From Luteimonas sp. 9C (GTDB lineage Bacteria; Pseudomonadota; Gammaproteobacteria; Xanthomonadales; Xanthomonadaceae): 64,000 bases of DNA. The notes below the pieces were generated by a model. It was not told the DNA's origin. It was given only the letters and a program-made list of their open reading frames with translations, and made no database searches. Positions within the stretch are counted from its first letter, which is position 1, and each line of letters starts with the position of its first letter. The DNA lies in NCBI RefSeq assembly GCF_902506295.1, contig NZ_LR733312.1:2452759-2516758 (forward strand). Direction: 5' to 3'. A program made the position numbers and the translations under genes. This document shows, one piece after another, positions 57,992 to 64,000 of this stretch.

Positions 57992-58004
57992 CAGGCAGGC
58001 AGGC

Positions 58005-58421
58005 TCATGCGCCGGAAGACACCGGCGTGGATGGAATCGGGGAGGCGGGCATTGTGCCGGCCGCGGCTGACGGCGGCAACGCGCGGGCGCGCCGCAACAC
58101 ATTGAGAAAGGCGGCGCGCAAGGCGGGATTGTCGGCCTGCGCGGCGGCAGGACGGGCCACGACGACGTAGCTGCCGGGCGCCAGCTGGGGCTGCATCAGG
58201 CGGAACGCATCGCGCAGGACGCGCTTGATCCGGTTGCGGCCCACGGCCCGCTTGTCGACCTTGCGCGACACGGCAAGGCCCAACCGCGCCGGGCCTGCTT
58301 CGGACAACAGATGCACGGCCAGCATCGGCGACGCGGTCCGCGTCGCACTGGCGAAGATTCGATCGAAATCCGCACGCGCGCGCACACGCACGTGCCGCGG
58401 ATAGCGGACACCGGCGGTCAT
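58005..58421 (-). CDS. rnpA: Ribonuclease P protein component
   Basis: 138 aa. The RNase P protein helps the catalytic RNA to process the 5' ends of tRNA. The RNR signature AVGRNRIKRVLRDAFR (about 64-79) is intact, after an N-terminal FDRIFASATR helix. A Pro/Ala-rich tail of about 20 aa extends the usual length. It lies 61 nt after rpmH. Confidence 0.95.
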   Translation of the reverse strand: MTAGVRYPRHVRVRARADFDRIFASATRTASPMLAVHLLSEAGPARLGLAVSRKVDKRAVGRNRIKRVLRDAFRLMQPQLAPGSYVVVARPAAAQADNPALRAAFLNVLRRARALPPSAAAGTMPASPIPSTPVSSGA

Positions 58422-58482
58422 GGAAGCTGCGCTGCAGAACGGGTCGGGAGTGCGGAGACGCGACTCACCGACCCGGAGGGCT

Positions 58483-58623
58483 TCAGGCCGAGAGGACCTT
58501 GCGGCCCTTCGCGCGACGACGCGCGAGGATCTTGCGGCCGTCGGCCGTCGCCATGCGGGCACGGAAACCGTGATCGCGCTTGCGCTTGAGGTTGCTGGGC
58601 TGATAGGTGCGCTTGGTAGCCAT
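58483..58623 (-). CDS. rpmH: 50S ribosomal protein L34
   Basis: 46 aa, the usual length. The sequence runs [19 protein letters not shown] through [20 protein letters not shown] to KVLSA, the full L34 pattern. Its promoter is at 58663-58692. It is the first gene of the rpmH-rnpA-yidC-mnmE run away from dnaA. Confidence 0.97.
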
Positions 58624-58662
58624 GGTCGAGCCCTTCGGGCAACGTGACGAATAGAACCGGAA

Positions 58663-58692
58663 ATTCTAGCGGCCTGTGACCTGACCGGTCAA
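58663..58692 (-). promoter_or_regulatory. Promoter of the rpmH operon
   Basis: On the minus strand TTGACC (58692-58687), an 18-nt spacer, TAGAAT (58668-58663), with the ATG 40 nt downstream. This is one of the better sigma-70 matches in the window. Confidence 0.7.
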
Positions 58693-58830
58693 GCCGGGTC
58701 TGTCATGCGCGCCGCGCCAGCCGCACGGCGCCGGGCCGCGGGTGGCGACATGATAGTCTGCGTGCCCTTCCCCGGCGACCTGGCCGCGCACCTGCGTGGC
58801 GGCGCCCGCTTTGTCGAATTCCGCCGCATG

Positions 58831-60168
58831 ATGGATGCCTGGCCCCGCTGCCTTCAACGCCTCGAAGCCGAGTTTCCGGCCGAGGATGTCCACACCTGGC
58901 TCAAGCCGCTCCAGGCCCAGGCCGACGACCGCTCGACCGTGCTGTACGCCCCGAATGCCTTCGTCCGCGACGAAGTGCAGGCGCGCTACATGCCGCGGAT
59001 CCGCGAGTTGCTGGCGCACTTCGCCGGCGTCGAGGATGTGAGCCTGCAGGTCGGGTCGCTGCCCCGTGCAGCCGCGCCGCCGCCGGCGAGCCTGCTGTCG
59101 GGAAGCGATGCCCGGTCCCAGCCCGCCGCGCCGATCGAAGCCTTCGCCGGCAACATGGACAGCCACTACACCTTCGACAACTTCGTCGAGGGCCGCAGCA
59201 ACCAGATGGGCCGCGCCGCCGCCTGGCAGGCGGCGCTCAAGCCGGGCGACCGCGCCCACAACCCGCTGCTGCTCTACGGCGGCACGGGCCTGGGCAAGAC
59301 CCATCTGATGTTCGCCGCCGGCAACGCGATGCGCCAGGCCAATCCCCGTGCGCGCGTGCTGTATCTGCGTTCGGAGGAGTTCTACAGCGCGTTCTTCCGC
59401 TCGATCCAGGAAAAGACCTCGGACCAGTTCAAGCGGCAGTTCCGCCAGATCGACGCGCTGCTGATCGACGACATCCAGTTCTTCGCCGGCAAGGACCGCA
59501 CCCAGGAAGAGTTCTTCCACACCTTCAATACGCTGTTCGACAGCAAGCAGCAGATCATCATGACCTGCGACCGCTATCCGCGTGAGGTGGATGGCCTCGA
59601 GCCACGGCTCAAGTCGCGCCTGGCCTGGGGCCTGTCGGTGGCGATCGATCCGCCCGATTTCGAGACCCGCGCCGCGATCGTGCTGGCCAAGGCCGCAGAG
59701 CGCGGGACCCAGGTGCCCGACGACGTGGCGTTCCTGCTGGCCAAGAAGATGCATTCCAACGTGCGCGACCTCGAGGGCGCGCTCAACACCTTGGCCGCGC
59801 GCGCGAACTTCATGGGCCGGGCGATCACGGTCGAGTTCGCCCAGGAGACGCTGCGCGACCTGCTGCGTGCCCAGCAGCAGGCGATCAGCATGTCCAACAT
59901 CCAGAAGGTCGTGGCCGACTATTACGGCCTGCAGATCAAGGACCTGCTCTCCAAGCGCCGGACACGCTCGCTGGCGCGTCCGCGTCAGGTGGCGATGGCA
60001 CTGTCCAAGGAACTCACGGAACACAGCCTGCCAGAGATCGGCGAGGCCTTCGCGGGTCGCGACCACACCACCGTGCTGCACGCCTGCCGGCAGATCCGCA
60101 CACTGATCGAAAGCGACGGCAAACTGCGCGAGGACTGGGACAAGCTGATCCGTAAACTCAGCGAGTAA
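58831..60168 (+). CDS. dnaA: Chromosomal replication initiator DnaA
   Basis: 445 aa. Domain I starts [16 protein letters not shown] as in other Xanthomonadaceae, and this decided the start; an ATG one codon earlier is possible. Domain III has Walker [10 protein letters not shown] (about 150) and Walker [10 protein letters not shown] (about 210). The domain IV DNA-binding signature is [14 protein letters not shown] (about 408). It opens the origin by binding the boxes in the adjacent gap. Confidence 0.97.
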
Positions 60169-60421
60169 GCTGTGCGTCCCGGCTGCTGCACAACACGGGG
60201 GCCGGACGTGGACAGCCTGTGGACAATTTGAGGGGTCGAAAGTTGTCCACAGCTTGATCCACCACTCCACACCGCACTGTCCACCGGGTTTGGAAGCTCC
60301 AAAAAGTCAATCGATTCAGTGGTTTGCAGTAGATACCAACCGATTTCGGCTCTACCCAGCACCACCATTTTTAGATTTATATCCTTTTTATAAAAGCACG
60401 GGACAAGGGGATAACACCGAC
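60169..60421. other. Probable chromosomal origin oriC
   Basis: The gap between dnaA and dnaN has DnaA-box-like sites TGTGGACAA (60218-60226), TTGTCCACA (60243-60251) and a weaker CTGTCCACC (60277-60285), facing one another. Then comes a strongly AT-rich tract (60364-60395, ATTTTTAGATTTATATCC and TTTTTATAAAA) suitable as the unwinding element. The dnaN promoter (TATAAA at 60389-60394) probably overlaps it. Genes on both sides run outward. Confidence 0.8.
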
Positions 60422-61522
60422 ATGCGTTTCAGTCTCCAACGCGAAACACTGCTCAAGCCGCTGGCCCAGGTCGTCAACGTCGTCGAGCGCCGCCAGACCC
60501 TGCCCGTGCTGGCCAACCTGCTGGTCCAGGTCCAGGACGGCCAACTGTCGTTGACCGGTACCGACCTTGAAGTCGAGATGGTCTCGCGCCGTGCGGTCGA
60601 CGATGCCCAGGATGGCGAAACCACGATTCCGGCGCGCAAGCTGTTCGACATCGTTCGCGCACTGCCCGACGGCAGCAAGGTCGTGATCTCGCAGTCCGGT
60701 GAGAAAATCACCGTGCAGGCCGGTCGCAGCCGCTTCACGCTGTCGAGCCTGCCGGCGGGCGATTTCCCGTCCGTGGACGAGGTCGAGGCGACCGATCGCA
60801 TCGCGGTGCCGGAGGCGGCCCTCAAGGAACTCATCGAGCGCACCGCGTTCGCGATGGCGCAGCAGGATGTCCGCTATTACCTCAACGGCCTGCTGTTCGA
60901 TCTGGGCGACACGCGTCTGCGCTGCGTGGCGACCGACGGCCATCGGCTGGCGCTGTGCGAAACCACGCTGGAGACGGCGGTCCAGACCAAGCGCCAGATC
61001 ATCCTGCCGCGCAAGGGCGTGACCGAGCTGCAGCGCCTGCTCGAAGGCGGCGACAAGACGCTGGAACTGGAGCTAGGCCGCAACCACCTCCGGGTCAAGC
61101 GCGACGATGTGACCTTTACTAGCAAGCTGATCGACGGCCGGTTCCCGGATTACGAGGCGGTGATTCCGATCGGCGCCGACCGCGAAGTGACGATCGACCG
61201 CGAACTGCTGCGCGCCGCGTTGCAGCGTGTGGCGATCCTGTCGAACGAGAAGTACCGCGGCGTGCGTCTGGAAGTCTCGCCGGGCACGGTGCGCATCAAT
61301 GCGCACAATCCCGAGCAGGAAGAGGCGCACGAGGAAGTCGAGGCCGATACCAAGGTCGACGACCTGGCGGTGGGTTTCAACGTCAACTACCTGCTGGATG
61401 CGCTGACCGCACTGCGGGGCGAACAGGTGATCCTGAAGCTGCGCGATGCGAACTCGTCCGCCCTGGTGCGTGAAGCGACGGACGAACGCAGCCGTCACGT
61501 GGTGATGCCGCTGCGTCTCTGA
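60422..61522 (+). CDS. dnaN: DNA polymerase III sliding clamp (beta subunit)
   Basis: 366 aa, the usual length, with three clamp domains. Typical segments are MRFSLQRETLLKPLAQVVNVV, split here only by the family pattern, ATDGHRLAL and the C-terminal RHVVMPLRL (clamp ends PMRL in many). AAGGGG precedes the ATG. It is followed by a parS-like site and a hairpin. Confidence 0.98.
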   Translation: MRFSLQRETLLKPLAQVVNVVERRQTLPVLANLLVQVQDGQLSLTGTDLEVEMVSRRAVDDAQDGETTIPARKLFDIVRALPDGSKVVISQSGEKITVQAGRSRFTLSSLPAGDFPSVDEVEATDRIAVPEAALKELIERTAFAMAQQDVRYYLNGLLFDLGDTRLRCVATDGHRLALCETTLETAVQTKRQIILPRKGVTELQRLLEGGDKTLELELGRNHLRVKRDDVTFTSKLIDGRFPDYEAVIPIGADREVTIDRELLRAALQRVAILSNEKYRGVRLEVSPGTVRINAHNPEQEEAHEEVEADTKVDDLAVGFNVNYLLDALTALRGEQVILKLRDANSSALVREATDERSRHVVMPLRL

Positions 61523-61555
61523 CGTCATCGGTAGACTGGGCGCCCGTCGCCCACA

Positions 61556-61571
61556 TGTTTCACGTGGAACA
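61556..61571. other. parS-like palindrome 1
   Basis: TGTTTCACGTGGAACA, one base from each of the two classic parS forms. It lies in the dnaN-recF gap. It is the binding sequence expected for ParB/Spo0J. Confidence 0.8.
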
Positions 61572-61572
61572 C

Positions 61573-61594
61573 GACGCCCGGCTTGCCGGGCGTC
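61573..61594 (+). terminator. Hairpin between dnaN and recF
   Basis: Stem GACGCCCGGC/GCCGGGCGTC with a 2-nt centre, then TTCCGTTCC. It starts 50 nt after dnaN and sits next to the first parS-like site. Confidence 0.6.
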
Positions 61595-61627
61595 TTCCGT
61601 TCCGGCCTGGTTGCCTCTTGGATATCC

Positions 61628-62725
61628 GTGCAGATCACCCGCTTCGACCTCCACAACGTGCGCAATCTGCAGCCGACTTCGCTGCGGCCCGGACCCGGCT
61701 TGAATTTGTTGCTGGGTGACAACGGCGCCGGCAAGACCAGCGTGCTGGAGGGACTGCACCTGATGGCGTATGGGCGCAGTTTCCGGGGCCGCGTGCGCGA
61801 CGGACTCGTCCAGCGCGGGCGCGAGGCGATCGAACTGTATGTCGAGTGGCAGGACGACCCGGCACAACCGGATCGGTACCGTCGGGCCGGTCTGCGCCAC
61901 ACCGGGCAGGACTGGACCGGCCGACTGGATGGGCAGGACGTCGCCCAGCTGGGCGATCTGTGTGCAGCGCTGATGGTCGTGACCTTCGAGCCAGGGAGTC
62001 ATGCGCTGATATCGGGGAGCAGCGAGGTGCGCCGCCGGTTCCTGGACTGGGGGCTGTTCCACGTGGAACAGGACTTCCTGCAACAGTGGCGGCGGTACGC
62101 ACGGGCGCTGCGTCAGCGGAACGCGTTGCTGAAGTCCGGCGCGGGTGGTTCCCAGCTCGATGCGTGGGACCTGGAGCTTGTCGATGCTGCTCTACCGTTG
62201 GATGTCAGGCGGGAGGGCTATCTCCAGCGGCTGCAGACTGCGGTGCAGGCGGTGGCCGCCCAGGTCGCGCCGGCGCTGGGCATCCCGGAACTCGTGTTTC
62301 TTCCGGGCTGGCGGCGCCAGGATCTGTCGCTGGCCGACGCGCTGGTCGTGGCACGCGACCGGGACCGGGCGATGGGGCACACCAGCGTTGGTCCCCACCG
62401 TGCCGACTGGCGGATCCGGTTCGATGATCGGCCGGAGCAGTCCCTGCTCTCGCGGGGGCAGGCTAAGCAATCGGCGTTGTGCTGCCTGCTGGCGCAGGCG
62501 CGCGACTGTGCGGATCGATTTGCCGGCCGTTGGCCCGTGATCGCGCTCGACGATCTGGCGTCGGAGCTGGATCGGCACCATCAACGACACGTCCTGACCT
62601 ACCTGCAGCAGGCCGGTGCACAGGTGCTGATCACCGGCACCGAACGCCCTGACCACTGGCCCACCGGGGTGCTTGAAAGTGCCGTGACGTTCCACGTGGA
62701 ACATGGCGCAGTGCGCGCCGTCTAG
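61628..62725 (+). CDS. recF: DNA replication and repair protein RecF
   Basis: 365 aa SMC-like ATPase that loads RecA at gaps. Walker [13 protein letters not shown] (about 32-43) is followed by the family segment [18 protein letters not shown], the signature [12 protein letters not shown] and Walker [14 protein letters not shown]. The start is GTG ([13 protein letters not shown]). Two parS-like sites fall in its codons, both read as FHVE: at about residue 143-148 and at the extreme C-terminus (about 354-359). Confidence 0.95.
62055..62070. other. parS-like palindrome 2 (inside recF)
   Basis: TGTTCCACGTGGAACA, a perfect 16-bp palindrome identical to the pseudomonad parS consensus, within recF codons for LFHVEQ. 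Confidence 0.85.
62688..62703. other. parS-like palindrome 3 (3' end of recF)
   Basis: CGTTCCACGTGGAACA, one mismatch from the perfect palindrome, in the last recF codons. Confidence 0.8.
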
Positions 62726-62760
62726 ACGACGCACAGACCGACGGCGGCTCGACCCCTCAT

Positions 62761-62776
62761 TGTTCCACGTGGAACA
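62761..62776. other. parS-like palindrome 4
   Basis: TGTTCCACGTGGAACA, perfect, in the recF-gyrB gap. Confidence 0.85.
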
Positions 62777-62814
62777 CGATTCGCCCGCCGGCAGTAGGGT
62801 CTTTCCGGCGCGCG

Positions 62815-62830
62815 TGTTCCACGTGGAACG
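62815..62830. other. parS-like palindrome 5
   Basis: TGTTCCACGTGGAACG, one end mismatch, 54 bp after palindrome 4 and 25 bp before the gyrB promoter element. Confidence 0.8.
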
Positions 62831-62854
62831 CCCGCCGGAGGCCCTGCCTCGAAC

Positions 62855-62863
62855 TGCTATAAT
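62855..62863 (+). promoter_or_regulatory. Extended -10 promoter of gyrB
   Basis: TGCTATAAT, an extended -10, about 88 nt before the gyrB ATG. No good -35 is seen, as often with extended -10 promoters. A parS-like site ends 24 bp upstream, so ParB spreading could affect it. Confidence 0.65.
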
Positions 62864-62951
62864 TCCGCCCTTGCGGCCCATTCCTGCCGCGCCCGTCCGG
62901 TCCCCGGGTGGTGCGCCTGGATGCCGCGCTCCCGGCCAGACAGCGAACCGA

Positions 62952-64000
62952 ATGAGCGACGAGACGATCTCCGGCGGCGCCCCCGCCAATTCCGACTACG
63001 ATTCCAGCCGCATCACCGTCCTGCGTGGCCTCGAGGCCGTCCGCAAGCGTCCGGGCATGTACATCGGCGATGTGCACGACGGCACCGGCCTGCACCACAT
63101 GGTGTTCGAAGTCGTCGACAACTCGATCGACGAAGCGCTGGCCGGCCACGCCGACGACATCGTGGTGACCATCCACGAGGATGGTTCGGTGTCGGTCTCG
63201 GACAACGGCCGCGGTATTCCGGTCGACATCCACAAGGAAGAAGGGATCTCGGCCGCCGAGGTCATCATGACCCAGCTGCACGCGGGCGGTAAGTTCGACG
63301 ACAACAGCTACAAGGTCTCGGGCGGTCTGCATGGCGTCGGCGTGTCGGTGGTCAACGCGCTCAGCGAGAAGCTCACGCTCGACATCTGGCGCGATGGCTA
63401 TCACCACCATCAGGAATACGCGATGGGCGAGGCCGTGACGCCTGTCCAGCGCGGCGAGGCCTCGACCAAACGTGGCACGCTGCTGCGCTTCTGGCCGGCG
63501 GTGGCCACGTTCTCCGACGTGACCTTCCACTACGACATCTTGGCCCGCCGCCTGCGCGAGCTCTCGTTCCTCAACTCGGGTGTCCGGATCAATCTGGTCG
63601 ACCTGCGCGGCGATGGCCGTCGCGACCTGTTCGAGTACGAGGGCGGCATCCGGTCGTTCGTCGAGCATCTGGCGCAGCTCAAGACGCCGCTGCATCCGAA
63701 CGTGATCTCGGTGACCGGCGAGCAGAGCGGCATCACGGTCGATGTCGCCCTGCAGTGGACCGACGCCTACCAAGAAACGATGTTCTGCTTCACCAACAAC
63801 ATCCCGCAGAAGGATGGCGGCACCCACCTGATCGGGTTCCGCGCGGCGCTCACGCGGACGCTGACGAACTACATCGAGCGCAACGGTATCGCCAAGCAGG
63901 CCAAGGTGGCGCTGTCCGGCGACGACATGCGCGAGGGCATGATCGCCGTGCTGTCGGTGAAGGTGCCGGACCCGAGCTTCTCCTCGCAGACCAAGGAAAA
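62952..64000 (+). CDS. gyrB: DNA gyrase subunit B (3' end off the window)
   Basis: 349 codons of about 810 are present. The GHKL ATPase domain is intact: [12 protein letters not shown] (about 51-62), DNGRGIPVD (about 84-92), [15 protein letters not shown] (about 120-134) and the Lys loop [11 protein letters not shown] (about 290-300). It supplies the energy for negative supercoiling with GyrA. The ATG was chosen to give MSDETISGG before the conserved start [21 protein letters not shown]. Confidence 0.97.

What the first reader, a model, noticed from the sequence alone, without database searches (positions are those of the whole stretch)
61556..62830. Five parS-like centromere sites packed into 1.3 kb around recF, beside oriC
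Five 16-bp sites (61556, 62055, 62688, 62761, 62815) match TGTTCCACGTGGAACA with zero or one mismatch; two are perfect palindromes. This is the sequence known to bind ParB in Pseudomonas and, with one change, in Bacillus. Chance alone would give essentially none at this density. Their position from dnaN to gyrB implies that the partition complex loads almost on the origin. parA and parB are not in the window.
Basis: partly seen in the sequence, partly recalled or inferred. Interest (0 to 1): 0.75.

Follow-up and report, generated by a model that had tools for sequence, protein, structure and literature searches.

The report
Centromere sites written inside recF
Five copies of the short DNA tag that bacteria use to pull apart their copied chromosomes sit beside the replication start, and two of them are spelled inside the repair gene recF, an arrangement that recurs in most of the related bacteria sampled and is mostly worn away in those that lack the matching protein.

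Summary
Confirmed. Five parS-type 16-mers lie at 61556-62830, and no other site with at most 1 mismatch exists in the 3.35 Mb genome. They are best read as the ParB-loading centromere of the host's ParABS system; parAB lies about 244 kb away. In 124 recF genes from 150 genomes of the class, at least one of the two is within 2 mismatches in 112, and 138 of 161 genome-wide sites with at most 1 mismatch fall on these two positions. Wobble bases are frozen: GAA in 66 of 66 sites of genes that otherwise prefer GAG. In E. coli's order a recF site is kept in 53 of 57 loci with ParB and in 1 of 15 judged without chromosomal ParB. P. aeruginosa parS1/parS2 are published recF sites of this kind (PMC4368675, PMC5521831, passages). 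So: a new member of a known kind, with a class-wide pattern I did not find in print; Livny 2007 could not be opened. No binding was measured.

The parts
61556..61571 (.). parS-type site, 1 mismatch, dnaN-recF gap ('up' site)
   Evidence: a site upstream of recF occurs in 51 of 72 family recF loci, at varying distance
62055..62070 (.). parS-type site A, perfect palindrome, inside recF, reads LFHVEQ
   Evidence: within 2 mismatches in 71 of 72 family and 99 of 124 class recF genes
62688..62703 (.). parS-type site B, 1 mismatch, near the 3' end of recF, reads TFHVEH
   Evidence: within 2 mismatches in 68 of 72 family and 96 of 124 class recF genes
62761..62776 (.). parS-type site, perfect palindrome, recF-gyrB gap
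   Evidence: equivalents in L006-L010
62815..62830 (.). parS-type site, 1 mismatch, recF-gyrB gap
   Evidence: equivalents in L006-L008, not in L009-L010
61628..62725 (+). recF, carrier of sites A and B (GTG start assumed)
   Evidence: TIGR00611, 310 bits over cut-off 172
60169..60421 (.). dnaA-dnaN gap, probable oriC: AT 0.58 at 60290-60410 against 0.34 over 58000-64000; TTGTCCACA boxes at 60218 (-) and 60243 (+)
   Evidence: origin function inferred, GC skew inconclusive
58705..60168 (+). dnaA (longest open frame; the true start may be later)
   Evidence: TIGR00362
60422..61522 (+). dnaN
   Evidence: TIGR00663
62952..64000 (+). gyrB, cut by the window end
   Evidence: NF011501 and TIGR01059, below cut-off because truncated

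Best explanation
The five sites are the parS cluster (bacterial centromere) of the host's chromosomal ParABS system. Host ParB, encoded about 244 kb away, finds these palindromes, loads on them as a clamp and spreads over the oriC region, and ParA moves that complex so that newly copied origins separate first. Two of the sites (62055, 62688) are recF codons. That pair is the old, conserved core of the centromere in the class Gammaproteobacteria: selection for ParB binding fixes the wobble bases and thereby imposes the peptide FHVE twice on RecF. The three intergenic sites are additions of narrower range. Shown here: sequence, uniqueness, positional conservation, wobble constraint, co-occurrence with ParB. 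Shown by others in P. aeruginosa: recF sites of this kind bind ParB, and synonymous changes weaken or abolish that. Inferred: binding and segregation function in this organism; clamp loading and spreading (established for ParB generally).
For: Five sites with at most 1 mismatch in 1.3 kb and none elsewhere in the genome. One parB with parA next to it. Host ParB aligns to the Caulobacter ParB chain 6t1f over its residues 10-243 and keeps the parS-type residues R173 and G201 and 4 of 6 further contacts named in PMC7383237. Family: 98 of 99 genomes have at least one site with at most 1 mismatch; recF site A or B within 2 mismatches in 72 of 72 loci read. Class: A or B within 1 mismatch in 89 and within 2 in 112 of 124 recF genes; 138 of 161 genome-wide sites with at most 1 mismatch are at these two positions. 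Codon control: GAA 97% at both sites against 55% and 47% in the two other conserved E columns; CAC 96% and 94% against 51% in the one other H column; GTG 98% and 93% against 44% in the one other V column. ParB: recF site in 53 of 57 loci with it, 1 of 15 judged without. Published: P. aeruginosa parS1/parS2 lie in recF (PMC5521831 and PMC3909081 passages); intragenic sites mutated without changing the protein lost silencing by ParB, modified sites were bound 2- to 10-fold more weakly in almost all cases, and any one of parS1-4 suffices for segregation (PMC4368675 passages).
Against: No binding or segregation experiment in this organism. In host ParB two of the six contact residues that PMC7383237 calls conserved differ (Q162 is H, K171 is R). 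GC-skew samples do not mark an origin here: samples on either side are mixed in sign, and the clearest minus-to-plus change falls between C2 2.02 and 2.18 Mb. 12 of 124 class recF genes have neither site within 2 mismatches, and 4 of 57 ParB-bearing loci of E. coli's order have none, so the recF sites are common, not universal. In that order site A is kept in only 24 of 57. One genome without a detected ParB (G479) keeps a 1-mismatch site B, and one class genome without a ParB hit at E <= 1e-30 (G198) also has a 1-mismatch recF site B.
Confidence: 0.94

Rival explanations
1. FHVE is simply a RecF protein motif needed for recombination, and the DNA palindrome is a by-product of the amino acids.
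For: The F and H of site A persist in 15 of 15 loci judged without chromosomal ParB (FHNE, FHHH, FHQH and the like), so that part of the peptide may matter to RecF.
Against: Amino acids do not fix wobble bases: in genes whose own preference is another codon, GAA is used in 66 of 66, CAC in 93 of 96 and GTG in 74 of 76 sites. Without ParB the V of site A is lost in 15 of 15 and FHV at site B remains in 1 of 15. The positions matching site A in the solved RecF chains 5zwu and 5z67 are not FHVE. Where E is replaced by K, the 12-base core is TTTCACGTGAAA, again a perfect palindrome, in 15 of 16 cases at A and 13 of 22 at B. The three intergenic sites do not code for RecF.
Confidence: 0.03
2. The sites bind ParB, but mainly to regulate recF and gyrB expression rather than to segregate the chromosome.
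For: Two sites lie in the recF-gyrB gap. In P. aeruginosa excess ParB lowers gyrB and neighbouring genes (PMC5521831 passages).
Against: The same passages report that in parB-null and parS-null cells only genes by the intergenic parS3/parS4 changed, not those by the intragenic parS1/parS2. In Caulobacter, parS insertions near gyrB did not change gyrB transcription (PMC5815017 passage). Gap sites downstream of recF are uncommon (6 of 72 family loci), whereas the recF pair is class-wide. No sigma-70-type promoter match in 61400-63000, weak evidence in a 70% GC genome.
Confidence: 0.06
3. The sites are operators for another palindrome-binding regulator, or for a Noc-type system.
For: A perfect palindrome is a generic dimer target; NCBIfam's Noc model also matches host ParB, below its cut-off (216 against 315 bits).
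Against: Host ParB carries R173 and G201 (parS type), not Q and R (Noc type) (PMC7383237 passages). Only one parB-family gene in the genome at E <= 0.001. The recF site goes with ParB presence across an order.
Confidence: 0.01

Closest known systems
Pseudomonas aeruginosa parS1-parS4 cluster (PMC4368675, PMC5521831, PMC3909081; passages)
   Same: Same 16-bp consensus. parS1 (TGTTCCACGTGGAACC) and parS2 (TGTTCCACGTGGAACA) lie inside recF and were mutated without changing the protein. Cluster next to oriC.
   Different: There parAB is about 7 kb from oriC; here it is about 244 kb from the sites. There parS3 and parS4 are intergenic near PA0011-PA0013; here the three extra sites flank recF directly. 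There six weaker sites are scattered; here none with at most 1 mismatch.
Xanthomonas citri parS (PMC3937727, citing Livny 2007; passages)
   Same: Same family; TGTTCCACGTGGAACG at the 3' end of dnaN, 3 kb from the origin; ParB-GFP foci at nucleoid edges.
   Different: The paper speaks of at least one site; recF has 0 occurrences in its text, so the recF pair is not described there.
Caulobacter ParB-parS
   Same: ParB family member with a solved structure (6t1f) that host ParB aligns to. Inserted parS is well tolerated around recF-gyrB, one of two insertion hot spots (PMC5815017 passage).
   Different: By that passage the recF-gyrB hot spot is distinct from the native parS cluster; its native site placement was not compared here.

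Membership tests
Chromosomal ParABS centromere (parS) | 16-bp palindrome close to TGTTCCACGTGGAACA | tested here: met
   five sites at 0-1 mismatch
Chromosomal ParABS centromere (parS) | Sites concentrated near oriC and rare elsewhere | tested here: met
   all 5 genome-wide sites with at most 1 mismatch lie in 1.3 kb beside dnaA-dnaN; oriC itself inferred, GC skew inconclusive
Chromosomal ParABS centromere (parS) | Cognate chromosomal ParB with parS-type specificity residues | tested here: met
   R173 and G201 kept; of six further contacts four kept, Q162 and K171 differ
Chromosomal ParABS centromere (parS) | ParA encoded with ParB | tested here: met
   ORF with [27 protein letters not shown] overlapping the parB frame; NCBIfam ParA/MinD-type models match below their cut-offs
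Chromosomal ParABS centromere (parS) | ParB binds and spreads from the sites in vivo | not testable with these tools
   needs ChIP-seq or gel shift
Chromosomal ParABS centromere (parS) | Removing the sites impairs origin segregation | not testable with these tools
   genetics; done by others in P. aeruginosa (PMC4368675 passages)
recF-embedded parS pair (P. aeruginosa parS1/parS2 type) | Both sites in the recF reading frame at homologous codons | tested here: met
   RecF alignment columns; spacing 600-669 bp in the 83 class genes with both within 2 mismatches. Equivalence to parS1/parS2 rests on the published sequences and recF location; that genome was not aligned here by name
Noc / NBS nucleoid occlusion | Noc-type residues Q173 and R201 in the binding protein | tested here: not met
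   host has R and G

The most novel reading that the evidence does not exclude
recF is the ancestral seat of the gammaproteobacterial chromosome centromere. Two parS sites were fixed in its reading frame early in the class and have been held base by base in most sampled families since, dictating FHVE (or FHVK) twice in an otherwise unrelated repair protein. parAB moved away in some lineages (median about 149 kb from recF in the window's family), but the centromere stayed; it eroded where ParB was lost, releasing RecF to change.
Probability: 0.8. Interest if true: 0.65.

Novelty: new member of a known kind. Interest (0 to 1): 0.55.

Why it matters
It maps where the centromere sits across a large class of bacteria, down to two codon positions of recF, and is a clean case of a DNA-binding site shaping a protein sequence. 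It makes testable why the centromere stays in recF when parAB moves, whether RecF pays a price for FHVE, and how centromeres decay after ParB loss. It also warns that FHVE in gammaproteobacterial RecF should not be read as a protein-function motif.

Tried and rejected
GC skew of 20 sampled 20-kb stretches, one more near parAB and the window was used to try to confirm the origin. It was weak and mixed, so it neither confirms nor denies.

The two 2-mismatch sites elsewhere in the genome were set aside as noise because the reversed pattern also gives one.

A first RecF extraction used the wrong reading frame; nothing from it was used, and it was redone. A related-loci scan with RecF gave only 5 near relatives; it served only for the local layout. 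Promoter and terminator scans around recF-gyrB found nothing. Structure prediction was not run: the sequences allowed would have given a very shallow alignment.

Literature: searches; papers looked into by passages only. The statements of parS inside recF that I saw all concern P. aeruginosa; a review on chromosomal ParB has no occurrence of recF. Most listed papers were not opened. Livny 2007, the survey most likely to have noted the pattern, is not held, so I claim no priority.

Rows dropped or placed by hand: class set, 126 recF over cut-off, 2 (one split, one partial) not fetched, 124 read, 3 of them from the window's own family. E. coli order set: 76 recF, 5 not fetched, plus E. coli K-12, 72 read. 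'Without chromosomal ParB' means no TIGR00180 hit at E <= 1e-20 for 12 genomes. G539 (its only hit is on the second of two contigs), G489 (only a weaker hit, E 1.1e-34) and E. coli K-12 (not itself tested; PMC3909081 says Enterobacteriaceae and Pasteurellaceae lack par genes, but the named E. coli control genome does ring) were placed there by judgement. On the strict rule, with K-12 left out, the counts are 53 of 59 with a hit and 1 of 12 without. These genomes share ancestry, so the Fisher P of 1.4e-10 overstates the evidence. Sites A and B were read off alignment columns, so misaligned sites are missed: L133 has a perfect site near its recF stop that was not counted as B.

Full report
Observation. 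The window is C2:2452759-2516758 of a two-contig, 3.35 Mb genome. At up to 2 mismatches the genome holds seven places: these five and two isolated 2-mismatch sites, against one for the reversed control.

Surroundings. Genes by NCBIfam are dnaA, dnaN, recF and gyrB, in that order. The dnaA-dnaN gap is AT-rich and holds two TTGTCCACA boxes, so it is the probable oriC. GC-skew samples were weak and did not confirm it. The single parB lies at C2:2759654-2760172 with parA beside it, about 244 kb from the nearest site.

Host ParB. It aligns with solved ParB chains, including Caulobacter ParB 6t1f. At the positions that PMC7383237 (passages) gives as parS contacts it has R173 and G201 as in Caulobacter, and G170, S172, N178 and R204, but H for Q162 and R for K171. 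It is parS-type, not Noc-type.

What the sites are made of. Site 62055 reads LFHVEQ and site 62688 reads TFHVEH in the recF frame. In the window's family, 98 of 99 genomes have a site with at most 1 mismatch. In 72 recF loci of that family (of 99 with recF), A or B is within 1 mismatch in 71 and within 2 in 72; both are within 2 in 67, with A-B spacing 615-657 bp, 627 in 36 of the 67. A further site upstream occurs in 51 of 72 and a downstream one in 6 of 72. The five-site layout is shared by relatives L006-L008, while L009 and L010 have four sites within 2 mismatches (record titles name Lysobacteraceae and Luteimonas).

How far it goes. A draw of 150 genomes over the class (135 families in the listing) gave 126 recF genes over cut-off, of which 124 were read. 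A and B are within 1 mismatch in 68 and 70, either in 89; within 2, 99 and 96, both in 83, either in 112. Genome-wide these 124 genomes hold 161 sites with at most 1 mismatch, and the two recF positions account for 138. Twelve of 124 have neither site within 2 mismatches.

DNA-level selection. Where the peptide is FHV[EK], codons are nearly invariant although recF GC ranges from 27 to 79%: site A CAC 103 of 105 (46.7 expected from the rest of each gene), GTG 104 of 105 (33.2), GAA 89 of 89 (45.7); site B CAC 97 of 100 (44.5), GTG 98 of 100 (33.3), GAA 78 of 78 (39.5). The phenylalanine codon is free (TTC 56, TTT 49 at site A), at the position where the intergenic and published sites also vary between C and T. 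The two other conserved E columns of the same alignment show GAA in 55 and 47%, the one other H column CAC in 51%, the one other V column GTG in 44%. In genes whose own preference is the other codon, the parS codon is used in 66 of 66 (E), 93 of 96 (H) and 74 of 76 (V) cases. Where E is replaced by K the core is the palindrome TTTCACGTGAAA in 15 of 16 at A and 13 of 22 at B. A protein motif alone cannot explain this.

Loss of the partner. In E. coli's order (80 genomes; recF in 76; ParB in 64), 72 recF loci including E. coli K-12 were read. With ParB, 53 of 57 keep A or B within 2 mismatches (A 24, B 53); of 15 judged without chromosomal ParB, one does. On the strict rule, K-12 left out, the figures are 53 of 59 and 1 of 12. 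E. coli reads FHNE at A and FTVEK at B. Without ParB the F and H of site A stay in 15 of 15 and the V goes in 15 of 15. The losses share ancestry, so this is strong but not many independent events. In that order site B is the one kept; site A is often gone even with ParB.

Where parAB went. Family pairs on one contig (45 of 99 genomes) put parB 54-635 kb from recF, median 149 kb. For the class I tabulated by hand 59 same-contig pairs (perhaps not all; for a few genomes with several ParB hits the nearer was taken; circularity ignored): median 19 kb, 46 under 50 kb (some single-contig lengths in the family set are rounded). The centromere stayed in recF while parAB lies far off in this family.

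Mechanism. Shown here: presence, uniqueness, conservation, wobble constraint, link to ParB. Shown by others: in P. aeruginosa parS1 and parS2 lie within recF (PMC5521831, PMC3909081; passages); intragenic sites were mutated without changing the protein, the mutated sites tested lost silencing by ParB, affinity fell 2- to 10-fold for almost all sites, and any one of four near sites suffices for segregation (PMC4368675, passages). In Caulobacter, recF-gyrB is one of two hot spots where extra parS is tolerated (PMC5815017, passage), which fits the region being a favourable seat. Inferred: that ParB here loads on the five sites, spreads over oriC and is moved by ParA.

Known or new. parS clusters near oriC, a parS near dnaN in X. 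citri (PMC3937727, passages) and recF parS in P. aeruginosa are known. I did not find the class-wide recF pair, its wobble constraint, or its decay with ParB loss in the searches listed under Tried and rejected; Livny 2007 could not be opened and may note part of this. I rate the locus a new member of a known kind and the wider pattern as the interesting part.

Noticed in passing
L238 (G479), recF site B: A genome with no ParB hit at E <= 1e-20 keeps TGTTCCGCGTGGAACA at site B, one mismatch from parS: a possible fossil site or a missed ParB.
   Followed up: no
L271, L289, L296, L302: Four ParB-bearing genomes of E. coli's order have no site within 2 mismatches in their 4-kb recF locus; three of them (G495, G512, G473) belong to one family, where the centromere may have moved.
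   Followed up: no
Class recF loci with FHVK, e.g. L055, L062, L104: E-to-K replacements at sites A or B mostly restore a perfect palindrome (TTTCACGTGAAA), as if the protein change follows the DNA site.
   Followed up: partly
G021 and G089 (family survey): A second, weaker parB-family gene (E 6.7e-40 and 1.2e-38) is present on another contig than the best one.
   Followed up: no
L053 (G236) and L066 (G119): A 1.0 Mb single-contig genome without a ParB hit has both recF sites at 3 mismatches, while congener G119, with ParB, has a perfect site B.
   Followed up: partly
C2 2.02-2.18 Mb of the host genome: Sampled GC skew changes from minus to plus there rather than at dnaA: rearrangement, contig error or noise.
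   Followed up: no
G210 and G223: Two class genomes with no recF over cut-off have close pairs of parS sites (43 and 36 bp apart), suggesting another seat when recF is missing.
   Followed up: no
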